Source: Polaribacter sp. HaHaR_3_91 (GTDB taxonomy: Bacteria > Bacteroidota > Bacteroidia > Flavobacteriales > Flavobacteriaceae). From it: a stretch of 64,000 nucleotides of DNA. The stretch is taken from contig NZ_CP058986.1 in assembly GCF_019278525.1 (NCBI RefSeq), forward strand, positions 620,001 through 684,000. The letters run 5' to 3'. Position 1 is the stretch's first letter. Every line of letters starts with the position of its first letter. Of the stretch, positions 1,004-15,000 are shown piece after piece. The translations under genes were made by a program, and so were the position numbers. The notes below the pieces were generated by a model. It ran no database searches. It saw nothing but the letters and a program-made list of their open reading frames with translations, and was not told where the DNA came from.

Positions 1004-4000
1004 CTAAACTTTCTGTAAGACTCCCAATGCGGTTTTTACAGTATCAATTCTTATAAAAGTGATTAATAAACGAATTCCGTTTTTGCTTTCTTTCTCTTTC
1101 ATTACGCAACTTTTAGGGTTTAGTTGCACATATTTTAACATTCTTGTAAACGCATCTGTGTGATAAAAATCGCTTTGTTGATTTGCTACAAAATAACCCA
1201 TCATTCTTTTTTGTTTTAGAATCACTTTCTCTAAACCAAGTTCTTTTGCCAACCATTTTATACGAACAGAATCTAATAAATCTTCTACTTGCGTAGGGAT
1301 TTCTCCAAAACGATCTATAATTTCAGTTTCAAAAACTAGTAATTCTTCTTCGGTTTTTAGCTCGCCTAATTTATTATACAAAGCCAATCTTTCTGTAATG
1401 GAATTGATATAATCATCTGGGAATAAAATCTCGAAATCAGTATCAATTGTAACCTCTTTTACGTACTCTTTTGGTTTGGAATTATCTGTAGGATACAATT
1501 CTTTAAATTCATTCTCTTTCAGTTCTTCGATGGCTTCTTGCAATATTTTCTGATAGGTGTCAAACCCAATATCATTGATAAAACCACTCTGTTCTCCACC
1601 TAATAAATCTCCAGCACCACGAATTTCTAAATCTTTCATGGCAATGTTAATTCCGCTTCCTAAGTCTGAAAATAATACCAAGGCTTCTATACGTTTTCTG
1701 GCATCATCCGTCATCATGTGGTATGGAGGCGTTATAAAGTAACAGAAGGCTTTTTTGTTAGAACGACCAACTCTACCACGCATTTGGTGTAAGTCTGAAA
1801 GGCCGAAATTATTAGCATTATTAATGAAAATTGTGTTTGCATTTGGTACATCTAAACCACTTTCTATAATGGTTGTAGAAACCAAAACATCAAAATCTCC
1901 ATTCATAAAACCGAGCATTAATCCCTCTAGTTTTTTACCTTCCATTTGTCCGTGGCCAATACCCACTTTTGCATTTGGCACTAAACGTTGAATTAAACCT
2001 GCAACTTCTTTAATATTCTCTATTCTATTATGGATAAAGAAAACTTGCCCTCCTCTAGAAATTTCGTAAGCAATAGCGTCTCGTACTGTTTCTTCAGAAA
2101 AACGGATGACATTACTTTCTATAGGATGTCTGTTTGGTGGCGGTGTTTTTATAACCGATAAATCTCTTGCAGCCATTAAACTAAATTGCAACGTTCTAGG
2201 AATTGGAGTTGCGGTTAAGGTTAAAGTATCTACATTTTCCTTTAAAGTTTTTAACTTGTCTTTTACTGAAACACCAAATTTTTGCTCTTCGTCGATAATT
2301 AATAAACCTAAATCTTTAAATTGTAAGCGTTTGTTTGTAAGTTGATGCGTGCCGATTATAATATCTACAGAACCATCATTTACACCATTTATAGCTTCGG
2401 TTTTTTGTTTTGCTGTTCTAAAACGGTTTAGGTAATCTATACGGACAGGGAAATCTTTTAAACGCTCGGTAAAAGTTTTATAATGTTGAAAAGCTAGTAT
2501 GGTTGTTGGTACTAAAATTGCGACTTGCTTGCCATTATCTACCGCTTTAAAAGCTGCTCTTACGGCAACCTCTGTTTTACCGAAACCAACATCACCACAA
2601 ACCAAACGATCCATAGGTTGTTCTTTTTCCATATCTAATTTTACAGCTTGTGTAGATGTAAATTGATCTGGTGTATCTTCATACATAAAACTACCTTCTA
2701 GCTCATGTTGAATGTGAGTATCTGGACCAAAAGCAAATCCTTTTTGAAGTTTTCTTTTTGCGTATAATTGAATTAAATTAAAGGCAACATGTTTAACTCG
2801 GGCTTTTGTTTTTTGTTTAATTTTTTTCCAAGCTCCAGAACCTAATTTGTATATTTTAGGCGCTTTACCGTCTTTACCATTAAATTTAGAAATTTTGTGA
2901 AGCGAGTGAATACTTACATATAAAATGTCTCTTTCTCCATAGACCAATTTAATGGCTTCTTGCTTTTTACCTTGAACATCAATTTTTTGTAAACCACCAA
3001 ATTTTCCAATTCCGTGATCCATGTGTGTTACATAATCGCCAATTTCTAGTTTGTTTAAATCTTGAAGGGTAATGGCTTGTTTTTTAGCGTACCCGTTTTT
3101 TAATCTAAATTTATGATAACGTTCAAAAATTTCATGATCGGTGTAACAAACCAACCTATTATCTACATCTACAAAACCTTGGTATAATGGAAAAACAACG
3201 GTTTCGTAATGTACTTCTTGTTCTGCATCATCAAAAATATCGTGAAAACGTTTTGCTTGCTGATCGTTGGCACAAAAAATGTAATTAGTAAATTCTGCTT
3301 TATGATATTCTTCTAAATTCTCTATTAATAAATCGAACTGCTTATTAAATGAAGGTTGTGCAATGGTATTAAATTTAATTTCTGAAAGACCTTTCGTTTG
3401 TGTTTTAGTAGATATTTCTATGAGTGAAAAATCTTGTATTTGATTTTTGATATAACTTCCATCACAAAATAACTCACTTGGTTTTGCGTGTTTTATTTCT
3501 TTGGATAAATCTTGGAAAGCATCTTCTGCCTTTTGATAGAATTTATCTAGATTTCCGGTAATTAAATCAATGTTTTTTGCAAAAATGACGGTTTTAGGCG
3601 AAATGTATTTAAGAAAACTTTCTCTGTTTTCTTGTAGTGTTTTGTTTTCTACATTTGGCATAATAGAAACCTTTTTCAGTTTCTCATTAGAGAGTTGTGT
3701 CTCTACATCAAAAGAACGAATACTGTCTATTTCATCACCAAAAAATTCTACTCGATAAGGTTCATCATTAGAAAAAGAAAAGACATCTATAATTCCTCCA
3801 CGTACAGAAAAGTCTCCAGGTTCTGTAACAAAATCTACACGTTTAAATTTGTATTCGAATAAAACTTCGTTAACAAAATCGAGTGATAAACTTTCGCCTA
3901 CAGCTACTTTTAAGGTATTTTTTTCTAATTCTTTTTTGGTAACCACTTTTTCGAATAACGCAGTTGGGTAGGTTACAATTACAACAGGTTTTTTACGAGA

Positions 4001-4339
4001 ATTAATTCGGTTTAAAACTTCTGAACGTAGTAAGACATTAGCATTATCAGTTTCTTCAATCTGATAAGGCCTTCTGTATGATCCTGGGTAAAAAAGAACA
4101 TTTTTTTCACCTAACAATTGTTCTAAATCGTTAAGGTAATAAGCTGCTTCTTCTTTATCATTGAAGATTAAAAGATACGGTTTATCTACTTTTTTAAAAG
4201 TTTCTGAAATAACAAAAGACAACGAAGATCCGACCAAATTCGATATTTGAAAATGGTTTTTATCTTGTTGAAGTTGGTTAATTATCTGCGATACATTCGC
4301 AGAGTTTTGATATTGATTTACAATGTTCTGCTTGCTCAA
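1004..4339 (-). CDS. mfd: Transcription-repair coupling factor Mfd
   Basis: Mfd removes RNA polymerase stalled at DNA damage and recruits the nucleotide excision repair machinery. The order of parts is typical: an N-terminal UvrB-like region, a CarD/RNA-polymerase-interacting domain (LEIGDYVTHMDHGIGKF), a RecG-like helicase core with Walker A GDVGFGKTEVA, Walker B LLIIDEEQKFG and the QMRGRVGRS motif, and the C-terminal TRCF domain. The frame is open to 4357, but a -7 promoter box (TATCTTTG) covers 4355-4362 on this strand. The TTG at 4357 would therefore lie before the transcript start. The TTG at 4339 (protein starting MSKQNIVNQYQNS, about 1111 residues) is the better start. The gene stands alone. 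Confidence 0.95.
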   Translation of the reverse strand: MSKQNIVNQYQNSANVSQIINQLQQDKNHFQISNLVGSSLSFVISETFKKVDKPYLLIFNDKEEAAYYLNDLEQLLGEKNVLFYPGSYRRPYQIEETDNANVLLRSEVLNRINSRKKPVVIVTYPTALFEKVVTKKELEKNTLKVAVGESLSLDFVNEVLFEYKFKRVDFVTEPGDFSVRGGIIDVFSFSNDEPYRVEFFGDEIDSIRSFDVETQLSNEKLKKVSIMPNVENKTLQENRESFLKYISPKTVIFAKNIDLITGNLDKFYQKAEDAFQDLSKEIKHAKPSELFCDGSYIKNQIQDFSLIEISTKTQTKGLSEIKFNTIAQPSFNKQFDLLIENLEEYHKAEFTNYIFCANDQQAKRFHDIFDDAEQEVHYETVVFPLYQGFVDVDNRLVCYTDHEIFERYHKFRLKNGYAKKQAITLQDLNKLEIGDYVTHMDHGIGKFGGLQKIDVQGKKQEAIKLVYGERDILYVSIHSLHKISKFNGKDGKAPKIYKLGSGAWKKIKQKTKARVKHVAFNLIQLYAKRKLQKGFAFGPDTHIQHELEGSFMYEDTPDQFTSTQAVKLDMEKEQPMDRLVCGDVGFGKTEVAVRAAFKAVDNGKQVAILVPTTILAFQHYKTFTERLKDFPVRIDYLNRFRTAKQKTEAINGVNDGSVDIIIGTHQLTNKRLQFKDLGLLIIDEEQKFGVSVKDKLKTLKENVDTLTLTATPIPRTLQFSLMAARDLSVIKTPPPNRHPIESNVIRFSEETVRDAIAYEISRGGQVFFIHNRIENIKEVAGLIQRLVPNAKVGIGHGQMEGKKLEGLMLGFMNGDFDVLVSTTIIESGLDVPNANTIFINNANNFGLSDLHQMRGRVGRSNKKAFCYFITPPYHMMTDDARKRIEALVLFSDLGSGINIAMKDLEIRGAGDLLGGEQSGFINDIGFDTYQKILQEAIEELKENEFKELYPTDNSKPKEYVKEVTIDTDFEILFPDDYINSITERLALYNKLGELKTEEELLVFETEIIDRFGEIPTQVEDLLDSVRIKWLAKELGLEKVILKQKRMMGYFVANQQSDFYHTDAFTRMLKYVQLNPKSCVMKEKESKNGIRLLITFIRIDTVKTALGVLQKV

Positions 4340-4354
4340 CCCGAAATATTTTAG

Positions 4355-4362
4355 CAAAGATA
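4355..4362 (-). promoter_or_regulatory. -7 promoter box of mfd
   Basis: The minus strand reads TATCTTTG, an exact TAnnTTTG match. Transcription would begin near 4349, about ten bases before the TTG start chosen for mfd. Confidence 0.6.
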
Positions 4363-4477
4363 TTAATTTGAATTTGTTAAATATAAAATGTTTAAAAACT
4401 ATTTTAAATAAGATATAATCTTTTATTAAAATAGTTTAGTGAAATTTACGTTTTATATTCTATAATGAGGATTTAAT

Positions 4478-4485
4478 TATCTTTG
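4478..4485 (+). promoter_or_regulatory. Orphan -7 promoter box
   Basis: TATCTTTG is an exact TAnnTTTG match more than 200 bases before the nearest gene start on this strand (4703), which has its own box at 4636. No open frame of useful size follows directly. It could drive a small RNA or a long leader, or be chance. Confidence 0.3.
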
Positions 4486-4635
4486 TTGCATCTTAAAATA
4501 GTAGATTATAATGTAAGGTATTCGTTTGTAAATTATCAATTTAGAATTTATTAGGTGTTATTTTTATCATTTTCGAATAAATAAAACTTTAACGCAAATA
4601 AAATATACAGCACTTTATTTTCTTCGTTAAATCAA

Positions 4636-4643
4636 TATCTTTG
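4636..4643 (+). promoter_or_regulatory. -7 promoter box of the small outer-membrane barrel gene
   Basis: TATCTTTG is an exact TAnnTTTG match. The expected transcript start near 4650 leaves a leader of about 50 bases before the ATG at 4703. The rest of the 4340-4702 gap is AT-rich with nothing else recognised apart from the orphan box at 4478. Confidence 0.6.
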
Positions 4644-4702
4644 CCAAAAAAAATATTAGAAATTGCAAATTGCTTTTCTTCTCCCTAAAAAAGAAAATTA
4701 AA

Positions 4703-5263
4703 ATGAAAAATATAGTTCTTATTCTTGTTTTTTTATTCACATTAAATAGTTTCAGTCAGAATGAAATTAATAAATGGGCTGTAACAATTGGTACCGGTTC
4801 TGTTCTTTATTCTGTAGAAAATGGCCCAGATATGGGAGGTAGGCTTATTCCTCAATTCCCTAGATTATCTGTTGCTACTTACCTTTTTAAGAATATAACT
4901 TTAGCTGGTAGTATTTCTAGTGATTTTAATGATAGTCAAAAATACACCACTTATGATGGTGAGGTTAGATATGATTTTGGTACTTCAGAAAACACAATAA
5001 ATCCCTATATATTAATTGGAGGTAGTCTTGTAAAGTCTAAACATGTATTACCAACTTTAAATTTTGGTATCGGTGGTACACTTTGGATTTCTGATCATTT
5101 TGGTTTACAAGGTGTATTGATGCATAAGTATAATGAAGAAAGATTCCAAAGTCAACGTTCTCACACATTTGGATCAGTTGGTGTTACATATCGTTTCTCA
5201 CTAAGTGGAGGGAATGGTCGTTCTACTTCTGGAAGAAAACGTATTTGGGAATCTAAGCATTAA
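4703..5263 (+). CDS. Small outer-membrane beta-barrel protein (OmpA-N-terminal-like)
   Basis: The protein is about 186 residues. It has a clear signal peptide (MKNIVLILVFLFTLNSFSQ) followed by alternating barrel-type strands rich in glycine and aromatic residues. It aligns by eye with the N-terminal barrel of the OmpA protein at 15488: both start NKWAV/NPWAV after the signal, share the PYILIGG/PYVYLGG strand and have a late DHFGLQG/DNLGLNF strand. It lacks the TSP3 repeats and the peptidoglycan-binding domain. The tail after the last strand is short and basic (GRSTSGRKRIWESKH). The frame extends back to an ATG at 4670, but the signal peptide starts at 4703. Its function is unknown beyond a likely outer-membrane barrel. 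Confidence 0.7.
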   Translation: MKNIVLILVFLFTLNSFSQNEINKWAVTIGTGSVLYSVENGPDMGGRLIPQFPRLSVATYLFKNITLAGSISSDFNDSQKYTTYDGEVRYDFGTSENTINPYILIGGSLVKSKHVLPTLNFGIGGTLWISDHFGLQGVLMHKYNEERFQSQRSHTFGSVGVTYRFSLSGGNGRSTSGRKRIWESKH

Positions 5264-5302
5264 TTTCTTCTATTATCTTATGGTAATTTGCCATTATGAT
5301 TT

Positions 5303-5767
5303 TTATTTGAGCGCTATGTAACTTGTTAATATTTTAGTGATTTCTTCTGCTGATAGAAAAGAGTCTATCTGCTCATCAATAGTATTGTTTGTACTTATAA
5401 TAATAGTAGAAGGATAGCTAATTGTGTTGTTTTTAGAAGCGAGCACTTCTACTATCTGATGAACTCCTGATTTATTTTTAAAAATTCTACCTTTTATGTT
5501 TATGAAGTCTTTACTTTCTGCATCAAAAGAAACAAAGTAAAAATGTTTGTTTAATAAATTTATAACTTTTTTATCGATAAAAGTATTCTTTTTCATAGCA
5601 AAACAATACTTACACCAGCTTGTGTGAAAAAAGACTATAATTGGCTTCTTTTCTTTTTCTTGTAACTTAAAAGCTTCTTCAAAAGAATAATTTAGTAAAG
5701 TGTTGTTTTTCTGCCCATATAAAATACAGGTGGAAAGTATAAAAAAGAAAAGAAGCGTGTTTTTCAT
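5303..5767 (-). CDS. Periplasmic thioredoxin-family protein
   Basis: The 154-residue protein has a signal peptide (MKNTLLFFFILSTCILYG) and a thioredoxin fold. The redox motif CKYC sits in HTSWCKYCFAM, and the cis-proline loop is SYPSTIII. It probably works in the periplasm as a disulfide reductase or isomerase. Its ATG shares one base with the stop of the TonB-dependent receptor upstream (TAATG), so the two are translated as a coupled pair. The receptor has an unusual Cys pair (CSVC) in its plug, which could be a client; that link is inference. Confidence 0.8.
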   Translation of the reverse strand: MKNTLLFFFILSTCILYGQKNNTLLNYSFEEAFKLQEKEKKPIIVFFHTSWCKYCFAMKKNTFIDKKVINLLNKHFYFVSFDAESKDFINIKGRIFKNKSGVHQIVEVLASKNNTISYPSTIIISTNNTIDEQIDSFLSAEEITKILTSYIALK

Positions 5768-8010
5768 TATTGTATTTTATATCTAAGTCCTGCAAACATA
5801 CGTATACCTTGGTTACCGGCATATACATAAGCTGGGTCGAACGCTAATTCGGGATTTGTTTCTGTATCTACTCCAACGTCAAAAGGATTGTCGCTATTTA
5901 AGATACTGTTAGCGGCAGGAGTGAAGTTTAATAAATTTTTTACCCCACCAAAAACTTCAAAAGTGTTGCTAATTTTTTTAGTAGCTTGTATGTTTTGTAT
6001 ACTATACCAAGGAGATGTTGGAGATCTAGGGTCATTTTCTCCCAATAAAGGTAAATCCATAGGTCCGTAAATGTTACCAGTGTAGTCAAGTAATAAATCG
6101 ATAGATTTTATTCTGTAAGAAATACTCCAAGTACCACTAAAACTTTCTGTTAATAGCTGTCTTTCGGTAACTCCTTCTTCTGTTGTAGATACATCCATTA
6201 AAGTTGCACCAGCTATAATTGAAAGACCATTTCTAAAATTAATATCTGTATTTAAAGATATACCTTTAGATACTGCATAACCATCATCTAAGTTACCATA
6301 GATTATTTTGGAAGTATCAGTTTCATAATCTGCAACTATTTTATTGTTGAAATGTGTGTAAAAAATACTTCCATCTAAATTAATAATGGTATTATTTTTT
6401 GTAACTATTTTTTTAACATAGTTAATGTTTGCATTCCAAGAAGTTTCTGGAAGTAATTCATCTTCAAAAAATACGTCTCTGTTTCCTGTAAGGGCAGCAT
6501 GGTCTTCTGTAAAAACATTAGCAACTCTAAAACCATTACCAATACTAACTCTTAAAACATCTTCATTATTATCAGAATTCCATTTGTAATTTACTCTTGG
6601 AGAAAAGACGCTTCCGTGTACATTATTATGATCATATCTTGCCCCTAACAAAAGTTTGCTTTTTGGTGCTAATGTAATTTCATCTTGAATAAAAACACCT
6701 GGTAAGTGAGTGATTGATGGATCGTTTTCTGTTTTACTGCCAGTTGCAGTGGTATTGTCGTCGTAATTTGTGTAACGATAAGCAACTCCCATTAATACAT
6801 CATGGTTTTTTCCAAAAGTAGTGTCGTATGTTAATTGTCCAAAAGCAATAAATTGATCAGCTTTATAAAAAGTGTCTCCGTAGTAAGAATTTTGGTCATG
6901 TCCATTCGCGCTAAATTGAAAATTTAATTTTTCATCTGTAGGTAATTGGTACGTTCCAAAAGTTTCCCATCTACTTGTGTAAATACTTTCTCCATAAATT
7001 TCTGTTCCTCCTCTATATTCAGGTGTCCAATCCATTTCTCCACCCCATCTATCTTCGTAAACATAACGACCAGCTACCGTAAAAACACGATTGTTTTTTC
7101 TTTCGAAATCAAATTTATTAAAAATAGAAATTCTGTTTTGTAAGGTTAAATCTGTAAAACCATCATTGTTGTTATCAATTGGGTTTTGGTAATTAAAATA
7201 ATTGATCCCTAATAAAGCATTCGTTTTTCCTAGCTTGTATTTTAAGCCAATATCAGTATTCACTTCTCCCCAAGAACTAGCGTAAGAATCTATCGTAAAC
7301 AAAGGTGAAGAAGATGGTTTTTTAGTGATAATATTAATGATACCTCCAACTGCCTCAGAACCATATAAAGTTGAAGCGGGGCCTTTTACAATTTCTACAC
7401 GTTCTATTAATGCTTGTGGAATTCCTGTTAGTCCATAAACCGTAGAAAGTCCGCTTACAATTGGCATTCCGTCAATCATAACAAATGTATAAGCACCCTC
7501 TAATCCGTTTATATGAATATCACCAGTGTTGCAAACACTGCAGTTTACTTGTGGACGAACACCATTTACATTCTGCATTGATTCGAATATGGATGGTGAT
7601 GGATTTTTCATAAAAAAGGTAGGAGAGTATACTTCTACGGGCACAGGACTGTCTAATTTCTTAACAGGTTTCATGGTTCCAGAAATAACTATCTCATCTA
7701 AAGAGTTATCTTCTGATAGAGATAAATTTTGAGTAATTTTTTGATTTTCATCAATTGTTATTTTTATGAATTTAGATTGATAACCAACACTACTCGCAAC
7801 AAGTGTGTAATTTCCTTTAGGAATATCTTTTAGTTTATAATAACCGTTTTCGTTAGAAGCTGTTCCAATTTTAGAGTTTTTTAAATAAACATTCACGTAA
7901 GCTAATGCATTTGAGCTATTCGTTATTTTTCCAGAAATAGAATTATTTTGGGAAAAAATTGTGTTTAAGCTGATAAGTGCTGTAAATAATAGAAGTCTTT
8001 TTAGTTTCAT
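5767..8010 (-). CDS. TonB-dependent outer-membrane receptor, probably for iron or another metal
   Basis: The protein is 747 residues. In order: a signal peptide; a carboxypeptidase-D-like domain (about residues 22-105, SGKITNSSNALAYVNVYL); a plug domain (about 115-235) with IERVEIVKGPASTLYGSEA and GGIINIITKKP; and a 22-strand-type barrel ending in an aromatic-rich strand (GLRYKIQ). No STN domain is present. The plug carries the Cys pair NCSVCNTGDIHINGLEG. The substrate is not shown by the sequence. The gene diverges from a DtxR-type regulator and the feoB operon across a shared operator, so ferrous or complexed iron (or manganese) is the likely cargo. Confidence 0.88.
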   Translation of the reverse strand: MKLKRLLLFTALISLNTIFSQNNSISGKITNSSNALAYVNVYLKNSKIGTASNENGYYKLKDIPKGNYTLVASSVGYQSKFIKITIDENQKITQNLSLSEDNSLDEIVISGTMKPVKKLDSPVPVEVYSPTFFMKNPSPSIFESMQNVNGVRPQVNCSVCNTGDIHINGLEGAYTFVMIDGMPIVSGLSTVYGLTGIPQALIERVEIVKGPASTLYGSEAVGGIINIITKKPSSSPLFTIDSYASSWGEVNTDIGLKYKLGKTNALLGINYFNYQNPIDNNNDGFTDLTLQNRISIFNKFDFERKNNRVFTVAGRYVYEDRWGGEMDWTPEYRGGTEIYGESIYTSRWETFGTYQLPTDEKLNFQFSANGHDQNSYYGDTFYKADQFIAFGQLTYDTTFGKNHDVLMGVAYRYTNYDDNTTATGSKTENDPSITHLPGVFIQDEITLAPKSKLLLGARYDHNNVHGSVFSPRVNYKWNSDNNEDVLRVSIGNGFRVANVFTEDHAALTGNRDVFFEDELLPETSWNANINYVKKIVTKNNTIINLDGSIFYTHFNNKIVADYETDTSKIIYGNLDDGYAVSKGISLNTDINFRNGLSIIAGATLMDVSTTEEGVTERQLLTESFSGTWSISYRIKSIDLLLDYTGNIYGPMDLPLLGENDPRSPTSPWYSIQNIQATKKISNTFEVFGGVKNLLNFTPAANSILNSDNPFDVGVDTETNPELAFDPAYVYAGNQGIRMFAGLRYKIQ

Positions 8011-8027
8011 TTGATAAATATTTTTGA

Positions 8028-8035
8028 CAAATATA
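8028..8035 (-). promoter_or_regulatory. -7 promoter box of the TonB-dependent receptor
   Basis: The minus strand reads TATATTTG, an exact TAnnTTTG match 18 bases before the ATG at 8010. The palindrome at 8042-8061 lies just upstream and covers the place of the -33 element. Confidence 0.65.
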
Positions 8036-8041
8036 ATTTAT

Positions 8042-8061
8042 TTTTTAGACTTGTCTAAAAA
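8042..8061. promoter_or_regulatory. Palindromic operator, probable DtxR/MntR-family binding site
   Basis: Two perfect half sites, TTTTTAGAC and GTCTAAAAA, are separated by two bases. The site lies in the 100-base gap between the TonB-dependent receptor and the regulator gene, where it overlaps the expected -33 regions of both divergent promoters. DtxR-family proteins bind such AT-rich palindromes. Assigning this one to the neighbouring regulator is inference from position and shape. Confidence 0.65.
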
Positions 8062-8085
8062 TATATTTATTAAATTAAAAAAGTA

Positions 8086-8093
8086 TATCTTTG
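8086..8093 (+). promoter_or_regulatory. -7 promoter box of the regulator-feoB operon
   Basis: TATCTTTG is an exact TAnnTTTG match, with an expected transcript start near 8100 and the ATG at 8111. The operator at 8042-8061 ends 24 bases upstream and so would compete with RNA polymerase. Confidence 0.7.
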
Positions 8094-8110
8094 TAGTATA
8101 AAATTTATAG

Positions 8111-8767
8111 ATGTTTACACTTTCTGAAGAAAATTATTTAAAAGCAATTTATCATTTAGAGTTAGATGCTGTTAAAGGAATCAGTACAAATGCTATTGCT
8201 AAAAAATTAGAAACAAAAGCTTCTTCTGTTACAGACATGATAAAAAAATTGTCTGAAAAGGAAGTTGTTGTGTATAAGAAGTATAAAGGAGTTAAATTAA
8301 CTAGTTTAGGAAAGAAGACTGCTGCAAATATTGTACGTAAGCACAGACTTTGGGAAGTTTTTCTGGTAGATAAGTTAAATTTTTCTTGGGATGAAGTACA
8401 TGATGTTGCGGAGCAATTAGAGCATATCAAATCTTCAAAATTAGTAGAGCAATTAGATGCTTTTTTGGGTTTTCCAACGCATGATCCTCATGGAGACCCT
8501 ATTCCAGATAAAGACGGGAATTTAAAAACGATAGATAAAAGTTTATTATCAACTTTATTAAAAAATGAAAGCGGAATTTGTATTGGTGTTGATGATTCTT
8601 CTTCAGAATTTTTAAAGTTCTTAGACAAAAAAGGAATTACTTTAGGGCAACAGATTACGGTTTTAGAAAAAGAAGACTTTGATGACTCCGTTTCTATTAA
8701 GGTTGATGATAAGAAATTATCAATTTCAAATAAAATAGCTAACAATTTATATATAAAAAAAATATGA
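8111..8767 (+). CDS. DtxR/MntR-family metal-dependent transcriptional regulator
   Basis: The 218-residue protein has an N-terminal winged helix (ISTNAIAKKLETKASSVTDM), the DtxR dimerisation and metal-binding domain, and a C-terminal FeoA/SH3-like domain. Likely metal ligands are the histidine in VRKHRLW and the acidic/His group in VHDVAEQLEH, with the family signature THDPHGDPIP following. Such proteins bind Fe(II) or Mn(II) and then repress uptake genes. The gene heads the operon that ends in feoB and probably controls itself and the divergent receptor. Its stop overlaps the next start by four bases (ATGA). Fe versus Mn cannot be decided from sequence. Confidence 0.88.
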   Translation: MFTLSEENYLKAIYHLELDAVKGISTNAIAKKLETKASSVTDMIKKLSEKEVVVYKKYKGVKLTSLGKKTAANIVRKHRLWEVFLVDKLNFSWDEVHDVAEQLEHIKSSKLVEQLDAFLGFPTHDPHGDPIPDKDGNLKTIDKSLLSTLLKNESGICIGVDDSSSEFLKFLDKKGITLGQQITVLEKEDFDDSVSIKVDDKKLSISNKIANNLYIKKI

Positions 8768-9774
8768 ATACCTACAACCCAATAGTAGCGCTCTTAGTGT
8801 TTTTTGGCGTTATTTTAATCTTGTATTTTATATTTAATCCTAAAAAAGGACTCTTTTTTAAATATCTCAAGGCTCGTAAAGAAACAGAAAAAACAGCGAT
8901 TGAAGATATTTTAAAGTTATTGTATCATGATCCTAAAACATCTATAAGTACCATTTTTGATGAATTAGATTTTAGTCATAGTTTGTTATTAGAAAGTATT
9001 GATACTATGCTAGAAACTGGATTGATAAAAAAAGAGCATGAGCTTTTTTCATTGACCGAAGAAGGCGATGAATATGCATTAAGAATTGTAAGAGCACACC
9101 GTTTATGGGAAAAATATTTATCAGAAAAAACGGGTTTTCATAAAACTGAATGGCATAGTAGGGCAGAGAAAAAAGAACATGAGTTATCTGGTGAAGAAGT
9201 AGAAGATTTATCTACACTTTTAGGAAACCCAAGGTACGATCCTCATGGAGATCCAATTCCAACTAAAGCTGGTCAAATTCCTGAGAAAAAAGGAATGCTA
9301 CTTGCAGATTTGCCTATTTTAAATTTTGGGAAAATTATTCATATAGAAGATGAGCCTACAAGTATTTATAAGCAAATTTTAGCAAAACATATTCATTTAC
9401 ATTCTCAGGTGTATATGAAAGAGATAAGTGAAAATCGCATTGTTTTTGAATCCGAAGGAGAGCAATTTGTTTTGCCACCTATAGTAGCTAAAAATATTAC
9501 TGTAATTTCTTTAGACAAAGCAGATGTTGTAGAAACAGATACGTTACGTTTATCTAATTTAGAAAATAATCAAAAAGCAACAATTATAGGTGTTTCTAAA
9601 GAATGCAGAGGAGAAAATAGACGAAGATTATTAGACTTGGGTTTTGTAAAAGGAGCAACGGTTAGTATCGATTTATTAAATCCGTTAGGTGATCCAAAAG
9701 CATTTTTAATTAAAGGAACTGCTATTGCCTTAAGAAAAGATCAGGCAGTTAAAATTTTAATTACCAAAGCATAA
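8764..9774 (+). CDS. Membrane-anchored DtxR-like protein fused to FeoA
   Basis: The protein is 336 residues. A single N-terminal membrane helix (about residues 6-25, VALLVFFGVILILYFIF) is followed by a charged stretch. Then comes a DtxR-like winged helix and dimerisation domain (about 42-170: LLYHDPKTSISTIF, VRAHRLWEKYL, SRAEKKEHELS, YDPHGDPIP). A C-terminal FeoA domain follows (about 255-336: CRGENRRRLLDLGFVKGAT, then FLIKGTAIALR). The DtxR metal-binding residues look conserved, but the DNA-reading helix differs from the soluble neighbour. It lies between the soluble regulator and feoB with a four-base overlap and a four-base gap. It may be the FeoA partner of FeoB at the membrane, a metal sensor there, or both. 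Confidence 0.8.
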   Translation: MNTYNPIVALLVFFGVILILYFIFNPKKGLFFKYLKARKETEKTAIEDILKLLYHDPKTSISTIFDELDFSHSLLLESIDTMLETGLIKKEHELFSLTEEGDEYALRIVRAHRLWEKYLSEKTGFHKTEWHSRAEKKEHELSGEEVEDLSTLLGNPRYDPHGDPIPTKAGQIPEKKGMLLADLPILNFGKIIHIEDEPTSIYKQILAKHIHLHSQVYMKEISENRIVFESEGEQFVLPPIVAKNITVISLDKADVVETDTLRLSNLENNQKATIIGVSKECRGENRRRLLDLGFVKGATVSIDLLNPLGDPKAFLIKGTAIALRKDQAVKILITKA

Positions 9775-9778
9775 AAAA

Positions 9779-10543
9779 ATGAAAACAGCAACAAAATCAG
9801 CTTGTGACACTTGTGCACATCATACTTTAGAAGGTGTTAAAAAACTGGGTGTAGATACAGAGAATGTAGACTTTGTAATTGCGTTAGCAGGAAACCCAAA
9901 TACAGGAAAAAGTACTGTTTTTAATGCATTAACAGGGTTGAGGCAGCATACAGGTAATTGGCCAGGAAAAACAGTAACTAGAGCAGAAGGAGCGTTTGAA
10001 TATCAGCAACAAAAGTTTAAATTAATAGATTTACCAGGTACCTATTCTTTAATGTCTCGTTCTGAGGATGAGGAAGTTGCTAGAAATTTTATCCTTTTTG
10101 GTAAACCAACATTAACGGTAATAGTTGTTGATGCAAGCAGGTTAGAGCGTAATTTAAATTTGGTACTTCAAATTTTAGAAATCTCTTCGAACGCAGTTCT
10201 TTGTCTAAACTTAATGGACGAGGCGGAAAAAAATAATATAAACATAGACTATAGAAGTTTATCTAGAGAATTGGGAATTCCTGTGGTACCAACAAGTGCA
10301 AGATCTAAAGAAGGAATTCCAGAATTAATTGCCGCAATTAGTGATTTGGCAAACGGAAAAATAGTTTGTAAACCTTATAAAATAAAAAGCATTCCAAAAC
10401 ATGTAGAAGATGCTGTGCAGAAATTGAGTGCAGCTATTAAAGAAGAGTATCCAACTGTTTCAAATAGCAGGTGGTTAGCTTTTAGGGTTTTAGAAGGAGA
10501 TACGCATATTTTAGATGCCTTAAAAACAGGTGATTTTATTTAA
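9779..10543 (+). CDS. feoB: FeoB, GTPase part (reading frame stops early)
   Basis: These 254 residues form the cytosolic G domain and helical GDI region of the Fe(II) transporter FeoB. Visible motifs: G1 GNPNTGKST, the switch region NWPGKTVTR, G3 DLPGTYS, G4 NLMDEA and G5 TSARSKEG. A Cys pair (CDTC) lies near the N-terminus. The frame ends at TAA 10541-10543, exactly at the end of the G/GDI region, and then continues in the same frame into the membrane part. Together the two parts make about 730 residues, the normal FeoB length. The stop is therefore either a nonsense mutation, a sequencing error, or a true split into two polypeptides. Confidence 0.85.
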   Translation: MKTATKSACDTCAHHTLEGVKKLGVDTENVDFVIALAGNPNTGKSTVFNALTGLRQHTGNWPGKTVTRAEGAFEYQQQKFKLIDLPGTYSLMSRSEDEEVARNFILFGKPTLTVIVVDASRLERNLNLVLQILEISSNAVLCLNLMDEAEKNNINIDYRSLSRELGIPVVPTSARSKEGIPELIAAISDLANGKIVCKPYKIKSIPKHVEDAVQKLSAAIKEEYPTVSNSRWLAFRVLEGDTHILDALKTGDFI

Positions 10544-11971
10544 TTGAAGAGAATGGGAACAAAAAACATTGATAAAATTATAGAATTATCTAACGAATTG
10601 CGTTGGCAAATTGGCGATGATTTTCACGATAATTTAACGGAAGCAATTTATGCTGATGCTTCTAAGATTGTTGAAAAAACAGTTGTAAAAGATAATAAAA
10701 AAGGGGCTTTTTATTTAAATGCTAAAATAGATAAAATAGTAACTAGTAAAATTTGGGGTTTTCCAATTATGCTATTGTTATTAGGTTTAGTACTTTGGTT
10801 AACTATTATTGGGGCAAATTACCCATCATCTATGTTGGCAAGTTTGTTGTTAGATACAATTCATCCTTTATTAAAAGAGGGTGCTGCATTCTTGAGTTTT
10901 CCTTGGTGGTTGTCTGGTTTTTTAATTGATGGTATTTATTTAGCAATTGCTTGGGTAATTGCTGTAATGTTGCCACCAATGGCCATCTTTTTTCCATTAT
11001 TTACCTTATTAGAAGATTTTGGATATTTACCTAGAGTTGCCTTTAATATGGATTCACTTTTTAAAAAATCTGGAGCACATGGTAAGCAGGCTTTAACTAT
11101 GACAATGGGCTTTGGTTGTAATGCGGCCGGAGTTGTAGCAACTAGAATTATTGATAGTCCGAGAGAGCGATTAATTGCAATTATTACTAATAATTTTTCT
11201 TTGTGTAATGGTCGTTGGCCAACGCAGATTCTATTAGCAACGATCTTTATTGGAGCTGTTGTTCCGTCAACATATTCAAGTTTAATTTCTTTGGTTGCTG
11301 TTGTAGGAATTGCCGTTTTAGGAATCTTTTTTATGTTTTTCTTTTCTTGGGCATTGTCTAAAACAGTTTTAAAAGGAGAGGTTTCAACTTTTAATTTAGA
11401 GTTGCCTCCTTATAGAACACCTTTATTTTGGAAAACCATTTACACTTCTTTAATAGATAGAACATTAATAGTTTTATGGAGAGCCATTGTGTTTGCGGCA
11501 CCTGCTGGAGCGGTAATATGGTTAATTTCTAATATTTTTATTGGTGATGAAAGTATTGCGTTGCATTTAATTGATTTTTTAGATGGCTTCGGATTTCTAT
11601 TAGGCTTAAATGGTGTTATTTTATTGGCTTATGTAGTTGCTATTCCTGCTAATGAAATTGTAATTCCGTCTATATTAATGTTAACAGTAATGGTAACGGG
11701 AGCTGTTGGTGGCGCAGGAGCGGGTGTAATGTTTGAGTTAGATTCTGTTACAGCAACAGGTGATATTTTAAAAAGTGGTGGATGGACGCTTTTAACAGCG
11801 GTGAATGTAATGTTGTTTAGTTTGTTGCATAATCCTTGTAGCACAACTATTTATACTATTTATAAAGAAACAAAAAGTAAAAAATGGACTGTGGTAGCAA
11901 CAATTTTACCCGTTATAGCAGGTTTTATAATTACGTTTTTGGTAGCTCAAATTTGGAGAATTTTAAGCTAA
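10544..11971 (+). CDS. feoB: FeoB, membrane permease part (in frame after the stop)
   Basis: This part directly continues FeoB in the same frame, and the first possible starts are TTG 10544 and ATG 10553. It starts with the end of the cytosolic linker and then has the hydrophobic core, with FeoB Gate-type segments: [29 protein letters not shown] and a second half with [11 protein letters not shown] and [20 protein letters not shown]. The conserved cysteines of the pore are present. No gap or frame shift separates it from the GTPase part. Reinitiation at the TTG or ATG just after the TAA would give a two-subunit FeoB; otherwise the transporter is inactive. Confidence 0.85.
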
Positions 11972-12042
11972 TCACTCTAAAATAAATTTTGATATTTAAC
12001 TGAAATTAATTGCTTAATTTGTATTTTGCAGTAAAATAAATT

Positions 12043-15000
12043 GTGCAAAATACATCATCCTTTCAGGTTTATAACGCTTCTGCAGGAAGTGGAAAAACCT
12101 TTACGCTCGTAAAAGAATACATTAAAGTTTTATTAACTTCTGATGATATTTTTTCATTTCAGAAAATTTTAGCAATCACGTTTACCAATAAAGCAGCTGG
12201 TGAAATGAAAGAGCGTGTATTGTCTAGTTTAGAAGATTTTGCAGATGGTGAGGAAAATGATTTATTGAATATTATTGTTGATGAAATAAAGATTGATAAA
12301 GCAATCATTCAGGAAAGAAGTAAGAAAATTTTAGATGCAATTTTAAAAAATTATTCTGCTTTTTCAATTACTACAATTGATAGTTTTACACATAAAATAA
12401 TTAAAAACTTCGCGTTCGATTTAGGTTTGTCACTTAATTTTGAAGTAGAAATGGATGCCGTTTCTCTTTTAAATGAAGCTGTAGATGTTTTAATTTCTAA
12501 GATTGGAACAGATGAAAAACTGACAAACCTTTTAATAGATTATTCACTAGATAAAACAGATGATGATAAGTCTTGGGATATTTCTAGAGATTTAAGTGAG
12601 TTTGCAAGAATCTTATTAAATGAAGATGATGTGCAACATTTTAGAAGTCTTGCGGATAAAAAATTAGAAGATTTTACAAACTTAAAGTCGAAGTTATATA
12701 ATCAGCAAAAAGAATTAAAAGATTCCATTAAAAAAGTTGGTGAAGAGTGTCTTGAGTTAATAGAAAACAACGATTTAGAGCATAAAAATTTTATGCGAGG
12801 TACTATTCCTAAATTCTTTGCAGATTTAAGCACTAAATCTGTAGATATAGATTTTATCAAACGAAGTGAAACGATAAAAAAAGCAATCGAGAATAATCAA
12901 TATTACTCAAAGTCTACCGCAGAGTTTATTGCAAGTTCTATAGATCAAATTGTTCCTGATATTGTTCGATTATTTAAGGAAGCTGAAGTTGTTTATCAGC
13001 AATTCTCCATGAATAAATTGGCGTTGAAAAGTATTATTCCTTTAGCCGTTTTAAATAATATAAATTCAGAGTTAGAAAATATAAAAGAAGACAATAATAT
13101 TCGATTAAATGCAGAGTTTAATCAATTGATTTCGGATAATATAAAAGACCAACCAGCTCCTTTTATTTATGAAAGAATTGGGCAACGTTTTCAGCATTAT
13201 TTTATTGACGAAATGCAAGATACTTCTGTGTTGCAATGGCAAAATTTAGTGCCATTAATAGACAATACGTTGGCGCAAGAAAATAGCAATTTATTATTGG
13301 TTGGCGATGGAAAACAAGCCATTTATAGATGGCGTGGAGGAAAAGCGGAACAATTTATTGAATTAGGTTCAGACAGATTGAATCCTTTTCATGTTTCTAA
13401 AGAAATTAAGAATTTAGAAACCAATTTTAGAAGTTATTCAGAGGTTATTAATTTTAATAATTCGTTTTTTCAGCATACGGCAAATTTCATTCAGAATGAA
13501 TCGTATAAGAATATTTTTATAGAGGGGAATAAACAAATAGAAAATGCTAAAAAAGGAGGTTTAGTTTCGTTAACCTTCCTTGAAAAAAATGAAGACAAAG
13601 AGCTTGAAAAAGTAAAATATCCGCAGAAGGTTTTAGAGAAAATCCTCCAATTAAAGGAGAGTTTTTCTTTGAGTGAAATTTGCGTGTTGACTCGTACTAG
13701 AAAAGACGGAGTTGCAGTGGCAAATTATTTATCAGAAAAAGGAATTGATATTGTTTCGTCGGAAACCTTATTGCTTAAAAATAGTGCAAAAGTTACTTTT
13801 ATTGTTGATGTTTTAAAGGTTTTACAAAACCCAAGTGATGAAGAAACACGTTTTGAAATGCTGTATTTTTTACATCAACATTTACAGATAGAAAAACCAA
13901 AACATGTCTTTTTTAATGAATTTGCAAAATCGGATAATCAAACTATTTTAGAATCTTTAAAAAACCTTGGTGTCACGTTTAATATTTCGGCATTTCATCA
14001 ATTGCCGTTTTATGAGAAAATAGAAGAAATTATTAGAGGTTTTAATTTGATAAATTCTTCTGATGCATATCTACAATTTTTTCTAGATGTTGTTTTAGAA
14101 CAGCAAAGAAACGGAACTGATGTTGGAGAGTTTTTAGAGTTTTGGGAACTTAAAAAAGAACGACTTAGTATTGTTGCTCCAGAAAGTGCTGGTGCAGTTC
14201 AGATTATGACGATTCATAAATCGAAGGGATTGGAATTTCCGGTGGTTATTTTTCCTTGTGATGTAGATATTTATCGACAGATAAAACCAAAATCATGGTT
14301 AGATCAATTGCCAGAATCATATGAAGGTTTCGATGAACTATTAGTTGATTATAGTAAAAGTTTAAGTATTGTTAGTGAAAGGGGTTTAGATATTTATAAC
14401 AAGCAACGCGAAGAATTAGAATTAGATAATTTTAATCTATTGTATGTTACTTTAACAAGAGCTGTAGAGCAATTACATGTTATTACCGATAAAAAAATTT
14501 CAGCTAAAGGAGAGGAGAATACTAATTTTTATTCAGGTGTTTTTATCAATTATTTAAAACAGCAAAACCTTTGGAATGATGATTTTTCTGAATATATTTT
14601 TGGAGATGTGCAAAGGGTCAGTGAAAAGAAAGAAGAAAATTCTGTTGCAGAAATCCATGAGAAATTTATTTCAACTCCTTGGCAAGAACATAATATTGTT
14701 TTGTTAGCAAATTCTTCTAAATTATGGAATACAGAACAAGGAAAAGCTATTGATTTTGGGAATTTATTTCATGAAATTTTATCTAAAATTATTACTTCAA
14801 AAGATGTTGAGAAGGTCATTTCTATGTATTATCAACAAGGGGTTATAAATATAGAACAGCAAATTTTTATTACAAAAAGTGTTTTTAGTATTGTAAATCA
14901 TCCTGAATTAGAACTTTATTTTTCAGATAAAGTTAAAGTTTTTAATGAAAGGGAAATTGTTGATGTAGATAATCAGATTATTATTTTAGATAGGTTGATT

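What the first reader, a model, noticed from the sequence alone, without database searches (positions are those of the whole stretch)
9779..11971. FeoB split by a single in-frame TAA exactly after its GTPase region
Seen: both halves lie in the same frame, the only break is TAA 10541-10543, and all G motifs and membrane motifs are intact on either side. TTG 10544 follows at once and ATG 10553 comes soon after. The break falls at the natural border between the soluble G/GDI part and the membrane part. It may be a recent nonsense mutation, an assembly error, or a functional two-protein FeoB made by termination and reinitiation.
Basis: partly seen in the sequence, partly recalled or inferred. Interest (0 to 1): 0.75.

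Follow-up and report, generated by a model that had tools for sequence, protein, structure and literature searches.

The report
Metal importer FeoB made by two genes
The stop codon that seems to break this metal-uptake gene is not damage: in this and many other bacteria the FeoB transporter is encoded by two neighbouring genes, one for the GTP switch and one for the membrane channel, cut at the same internal loop.

Summary
The in-frame TAA at 10541-10543 is real, but it is neither a recent mutation nor an error. It ends one gene; a second gene starts at ATG 10553. Among 146 Polaribacter genomes all 15 carriers have this FeoB as two ORFs, in 6 of the 15 in different frames. Over ten named phyla I classed 121 loci as two-gene and 32 as one-gene. 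In 87 of the 121 the halves are in different frames; start-to-stop gaps run from -86 to +547 bases; in three genomes a GxxExxY-type gene lies between the halves. Both halves are under strong purifying selection (dN/dS 0.005-0.165). The cut is not at the soluble/membrane border: it lies in a variable loop inside the helical GDI domain. Trees reject one origin of the split: at least 5, most simply 9, changes between one-gene and two-gene form. Upstream lie a DtxR-family regulator and a membrane-anchored DtxR-FeoA protein. Most likely the halves reassemble into a GTP-controlled Fe2+ or Mn2+ importer; products, assembly and metal are untested. My paper searches found no description of it.

The parts
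8111..8767 (+). DtxR-family metal-dependent regulator with one FeoA domain (218 aa)
   Evidence: Pfam PF01325, PF02742, PF04023; best NCBIfam match an MntR model, 159 bits, far below its cut-off of 350
8764..9774 (+). Membrane-anchored DtxR-like protein with C-terminal FeoA domain (336 aa); start overlaps the gene before by 4 bases
   Evidence: Pfam PF02742 and PF04023, no PF01325; one N-terminal hydrophobic stretch, Kyte-Doolittle 2.92 at residue 6; translation
9779..10543 (+). feoB-N: N-terminal CxxC, GTPase domain, first part of the GDI helical domain (254 aa), ends in TAA 10541-10543
   Evidence: PF02421 211 bits, PF17910 profile 3-46/90; dN/dS 0.005-0.165 against 16 relatives
10544..10552 (+). 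9-base spacer between the stop of feoB-N and the start of feoB-C; length, sequence and frame vary among relatives
10553..11971 (+). feoB-C: last GDI helices and membrane channel (Gate, FeoB_C), 472 aa, start ATG 10553
   Evidence: PF07670 and PF07664; conserved ATG; dN/dS 0.026-0.115

Best explanation
This is an intact FeoB-type divalent metal importer encoded by two adjacent genes. feoB-N (9779-10543) makes the GTPase plus the first GDI helices; feoB-C (10553-11971) makes the last GDI helices plus the membrane channel. Shown here: the arrangement is conserved, under purifying selection, independent of reading frame, and cut at one loop of the GDI domain. Inferred: both proteins are translated from one operon mRNA (9-base gap, probably coupled), rejoin through the GDI helix bundle and work like one-piece FeoB, GTP binding on the N protein controlling metal passage through the C protein. 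The FeoA function is probably supplied by the membrane-tethered DtxR-FeoA protein (8764-9774), which could also sense cytoplasmic metal. The metal is Fe2+ or Mn2+; the evidence does not decide.
For: 15 of 15 carriers among 146 genus genomes are two-gene, 6 of 15 with the halves in different frames. Family: 43 of 397 genomes carry it at E<=1e-90; 39 have an open frame of 471-497 aa. 121 two-gene loci: 87 with halves in different frames; 117 gaps measured, 37 overlaps, 64 of 0-20, 12 of 21-100, 4 of 217-547 bases. GxxExxY-type gene between the halves in L080, L083, L085. dN/dS of both halves 0.005-0.165 over 16 comparisons. G1 and G3 motifs in 123 of 123 split rows, N..D 122, G[FY]GCN 121, SLCNGRWP 122, HNPC 123. 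In 12 of 12 split rows aligned with 14 one-gene rows the break lies in the same variable stretch. Upstream match to the DtxR-FeoA protein in 64 of 64 split loci with enough upstream DNA.
Against: No transcript, peptide or assembly evidence. No structure model could be made (12 busy answers, last). The TIGR00437 equivalog cut-off (315.65) is reached by neither half (219.9 and 164 bits). The metal is open: MntR-like regulator scores are below cut-off, and MntH co-occurrence differs between genus (3 of 15 carriers against 71 of 131 others, p 0.014) and family (23 of 43 against 204 of 354, p 0.63). In some genomes the halves lie 217-547 bases apart, so translational coupling is not a general feature.
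Confidence: 0.88

Rival explanations
1. A recent nonsense mutation has killed the gene (pseudogene).
For: Single in-frame TAA; a second, one-piece FeoB exists in the genome, so loss could be tolerated.
Against: Split conserved in 15 of 15 genus carriers and widely beyond; low dN/dS in both halves; motifs kept.
Confidence: 0.02
2. Sequencing or assembly error at 10541-10543.
For: Raw reads not available. Error-like breaks do exist nearby in kind: two one-piece FeoB1 copies of the genus (G003, G078) change frame at A-runs.
Against: Independent assemblies of other species show the same split, often in a different frame or with extra stops.
Confidence: 0.01
3. Stop codon read-through or recoding makes a single protein.
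For: The halves share a frame here.
Against: 87 of 121 two-gene loci have the halves in different frames; 37 of 117 overlap; some lie 217-547 bases apart. L011, L012 and L015 carry further stops before the ATG.
Confidence: 0.02
4. The two halves are separate proteins with separate jobs: a free GTPase and a GTP-independent membrane carrier that no longer work together.
For: In 4 of 117 loci the halves are 217-547 bases apart, so co-translation is not required.
Against: In the loci classed, the N gene precedes the C gene on the same strand; GDI helices on both sides of the cut remain alignable to one-gene forms; repeated changes between the forms suggest that the pair still works as one unit.
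Confidence: 0.07

Closest known systems
Canonical one-piece FeoB (TIGR00437; Pfam FeoB_N, FeoB_Cyto, Gate, FeoB_C)
   Same: Same domains in the same order; G motifs and conserved membrane cysteines present
   Different: Two polypeptides; the cut lies inside the GDI domain; neither half reaches the TIGR00437 cut-off
Porphyromonas gingivalis FB2/FeoB2 with PgMntR (passages of PMC4805248)
   Same: A FeoB paralogue encoded beside a DtxR-family regulator that carries FeoA domains
   Different: FB2 is described there as one transporter, for manganese; I did not have its sequence, so kinship is untested. PgMntR is a DNA-binding soluble protein; the window's second DtxR-like protein has an N-terminal membrane helix
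FeoAB fusion of Bacteroides fragilis (passages of PMC8980893)
   Same: Bacteroidota Feo system with changed gene boundaries. The paper lists 31 FeoA-NFeoB sequences without a membrane part and treats them as possible sequencing errors
   Different: There FeoA is fused to a whole FeoB; here FeoA is fused to a membrane-anchored DtxR-like protein and FeoB is divided
Split feo operon of Helicobacter pylori (passages of PMC10353542)
   Same: The word 'split' is used for a Feo system
   Different: There feoA was moved away from feoB; FeoB itself is one protein

Membership tests
FeoB transporter | GTPase domain with G1, G3 and G4 motifs | tested here: met
   FeoB_N 211 bits on the N half; motifs in 122-123 of 123 split rows
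FeoB transporter | GDI helical domain joining GTPase and membrane part | tested here: met
   Present but divided between the two proteins (profile 3-46/90 on the N half)
FeoB transporter | Membrane part with Gate and FeoB_C domains and conserved cysteines | tested here: met
   PF07670 and PF07664; G[FY]GCN 121, SLCNGRWP 122, HNPC 123 of 123 split rows
FeoB transporter | Single polypeptide reaching the TIGR00437 equivalog cut-off | tested here: not met
   219.9 and 164 bits against 315.65; two ORFs in 121 of 153 loci classed
FeoB transporter | GTP-dependent Fe2+ transport | not testable with these tools
   needs experiment
FB2/MntR-type manganese system | DtxR/MntR-type regulator beside the feoB gene | tested here: met
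   (MntR models best, below cut-off)
FB2/MntR-type manganese system | Sequence kinship with P. gingivalis FB2 | not tested
   FB2 sequence was not among the loci fetched
FB2/MntR-type manganese system | Mn2+ transport | not testable with these tools
   MntH co-occurrence as a proxy: genus 3/15 against 71/131, p 0.014; family 23/43 against 204/354, p 0.63
Pseudogene | Relaxed selection or further lesions | tested here: not met
   dN/dS 0.005-0.165; no other stop
Programmed read-through gene | Both parts kept in one frame | tested here: not met
   34 of 121 in one frame

The most novel reading that the evidence does not exclude
A widespread, undescribed Feo variant: FeoB has been divided, and perhaps rejoined, repeatedly at one GDI loop. 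In it a detachable GTPase subunit and a FeoA domain carried on a membrane-anchored DtxR metal sensor together gate the channel, so that cytoplasmic metal shuts import directly at the protein level and not only through transcription.
Probability: 0.3. Interest if true: 0.72.

Novelty: new variant of a known kind. Interest (0 to 1): 0.52.

Why it matters
How the GTPase of FeoB controls its membrane channel is open (PMC8749426 abstract and a passage of PMC8980893 call the mechanism unclear or unknown). Here the protein has been cut in the connecting GDI domain, on the tree more than once, and both parts are still under selection. That gives a ready-made system in which switch and channel can be made, mixed and swapped as separate proteins. 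It also warns that finding FeoB by its GTPase domain alone (PF02421, as in the methods of PMC8749426) hides the arrangement: some database entries name the C half 'nucleoside recognition domain-containing protein' and the N half 'FeoB small GTPase domain-containing protein'.

Tried and rejected
Rejected: nonsense mutation, assembly error and read-through (see rivals). TTG 10544 as start: not conserved. One origin of the split: rejected by the AU test (p 1.2e-7), with the tool's warnings that some rows have odd letter make-up and that L097 is a long branch. Mn role by absence of MntH: seen in the genus, not in the family. Solved structures: none matched the C half at E 0.001. RNA element in 7900-12100: none in Rfam at gathering thresholds. 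A structure model of a natural one-gene relative (alignment A3) was asked for 12 times; each time the machine was busy, so no fold was made. Kinship with P. gingivalis FB2 was not tested.

Rows dropped before counts: L141, L155, L172, L181 (relation of the halves unclear) from the tree and; L063 (N half cut by the contig end) and L047/L100 (one genome, deletion form) from the trees; L063 and L047 are kept, L100 is not; duplicate fetches of the same loci from trees; L115, L116 and L143 (taken as the same genomes as L015, L022 and L070) only. The tree had 158 rows, thinned to 86 and to 53 chosen by hand. In one search the start of the C half was the first ATG for the loci of searches and the first ATG, GTG or TTG for those, so overlaps may be overstated; for 4 of 121 no ATG was found. 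The handle lists for MntH were typed by hand. still counts L100, L141 and L172. Phylum names are those of record titles, mostly metagenome assemblies, and may be wrong for single contigs.

Full report
What is there. Window 9779-10543 encodes 254 residues ending in TAA, and the same frame continues from 10544 to 11971. The first ORF matches FeoB_N (211 bits) and the first half of FeoB_Cyto, the GDI domain (profile 3-46 of 90); the second matches Gate and FeoB_C. The genome is one contig of 4,208,346 bases and also holds a one-piece FeoB (open frame 707 aa; 29% identity over 35-329 of the C half). Named relatives place the genus as Polaribacter.

It is not a recent lesion. A search of 146 genomes of the genus with the C half gave 15 carriers at 81-100% identity, own genome included. 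All 15 are two-gene, and in 6 of 15 the halves are in different frames. The conserved start is the ATG at 10553; L011, L012 and L015 have stops in the C frame just before it. In the family, 43 of 397 genomes carry the gene at E <= 1e-90: 39 have an open frame of 471-497 aa, three are one-gene (728, 732, 742 aa) and one (G261) has 645 aa with an internal deletion. Junctions were read for 30 of these 43. In the phylum sample 46 of 395 carry it at E <= 1e-70: two have open frames of 734 and 781 aa, one is a partial match (238 aa), and 43 lie between 471 and 534 aa.

It reaches beyond the phylum. Of the 80, 50 are two-gene, 26 one-gene and 4 unclear. Two-gene: Bacteroidota 28, Chloroflexota 12, Ignavibacteriota 5, Verrucomicrobiota 2, Calditrichota 1, Balneolota 1, Acidobacteriota 1. 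One-gene: Acidobacteriota 9, Gemmatimonadota 8, Bacteroidota 4, and one each in Verrucomicrobiota, Calditrichota, Latescibacterota, Planctomycetota and a record without phylum. Over both sets, after removing duplicates and the unclear loci, 121 are two-gene and 32 one-gene. Among the 121 the C half is in the N frame in 34 and out of it in 87. Of 117 gaps measured, 37 are overlaps, 64 are 0-20 bases, 12 are 21-100 and 4 are 217-547. In L080, L083 and L085 the 506-547 base gap holds an open frame. The two that I searched (L080, L083) match TIGR04256, GxxExxY protein; the gaps of L080 and L085 are 76% identical over 460 bases and end in short inverted repeats.

Both genes are kept. Nei-Gojobori dN/dS of the window against 16 relatives is 0.005-0.165 for the N half and 0.026-0.115 for the C half; synonymous sites are near saturation in the more distant pairs. 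In 123 split rows, G1 and G3 motifs occur in 123, N..D in 122, HNPC in 123, SLCNGRWP in 122, G[FY]GCN in 121 and a CxxC before the GTPase in 120; in 31 one-gene rows the same counts are 30, 30, 31, 31, 31, 26 and 22. As a contrast, among the FeoB1-type matches listed three had short open frames: one (G031) runs off its contig, and two (G003, G078) change frame at A-runs. That is what error or damage looks like; it falls in the same GDI region, which I note without explanation.

Where the cut falls. In an alignment of 12 two-gene and 14 one-gene rows, the break of all 12 lies in one hypervariable stretch: after the helix-like segment RWLAFRVLEGDTHILDALKTG and before [32 protein letters not shown]. 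One-gene relatives bridge it with a variable loop. A profile of one-gene relatives matches solved soluble FeoB domains past this point (8vwl, profile 31-289 to chain 2-268; 3iby, 36-274 to 6-246), whereas the N half alone stops at about residue 210-222 of such chains. So the cut is inside the GDI domain and the membrane protein keeps the last GDI helices. No model of the fold could be made.

How often it happened. With 53 rows (33 split, 20 fused) a careful tree needs 9 changes of state, at least 5 forced by well-supported branches, 9-10 in bootstrap trees. Holding all split rows together is rejected (AU p 1.2e-7). Direction is not settled by these counts: fission, re-fusion and transfer between phyla may all play a part.

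Neighbours. [quoted passage not shown]). Of 94 loci with at least 1150 bases upstream, a match to the second protein occurs in 64 of 64 split and 29 of 30 fused; a long ORF with an N-terminal membrane-like helix in 58 of 64 split and 19 of 30 fused. In five one-gene loci of the Flavobacteria kind (L095, L096, L157, L163, L190) only the FeoA part matches, and the three printed ORFs are 80-95 aa; L097 is an exception with the long form. Both DtxR-like proteins of the window match an MntR model best, below its cut-off. MntH co-occurrence does not settle the metal: genus 3 of 15 against 71 of 131 (p 0.014), family 23 of 43 against 204 of 354 (p 0.63).

Literature. Full-text searches aimed at a split, two-gene or fissioned FeoB and at DtxR-FeoA or Meo systems listed no paper that describes it; most hits were seen only as listings. 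Of PMC8749426 I saw abstract, passages and methods section 15; of PMC4805248, PMC8980893, PMC9478572, PMC4847171, PMC10434189 and PMC10353542 passages only. The library lacks most subscription papers. Databases list the halves as separate proteins, so the genes are catalogued though, as far as I found, not discussed.

Mechanism. The most likely reading is one importer made of two polypeptides that meet through the GDI helices, with the FeoA function on a membrane-anchored sensor. The gene arrangement is shown; assembly, GTP control, the role of the sensor and the metal are inferred.

Noticed in passing
window 8764-9774: A DtxR-like metal-binding domain and a FeoA domain joined to one N-terminal membrane helix; Pfam's DtxR DNA-binding domain (PF01325) is not matched. 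It may be a membrane-held metal sensor rather than a classical repressor.
   Followed up: partly
L080, L083, L085 (gaps of 506, 506, 547 bases): GxxExxY-type genes, in L080 and L085 with short inverted repeats at the gap ends, lie exactly between the two feoB halves.
   Followed up: partly
L100 (G261), 3468-5387: A one-ORF FeoB of 640 aa that lacks the end of the GTPase half and the first residues of the membrane half, although a genome of the same genus (G456) has the two-gene form; deletion or assembly join.
   Followed up: no
L195 (G003) and L196 (G078): The one-piece FeoB1 of two other Polaribacter genomes is interrupted by frame changes at A-runs, again in the GDI region; error or true damage not decided.
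   Followed up: partly
window 9779-10543, N-terminal residues: A CxxC motif before the GTPase domain occurs in 120 of 123 two-gene and 22 of 31 one-gene rows, and in 0 of 4 FeoB1 rows; possible metal site.
   Followed up: partly
G000:C1 near 4060228-4063707 (L002): The genome has a second, one-piece FeoB (open frame 707 aa); the two-gene FeoB is an additional system found in 15 of 146 genus genomes.
   Followed up: partly
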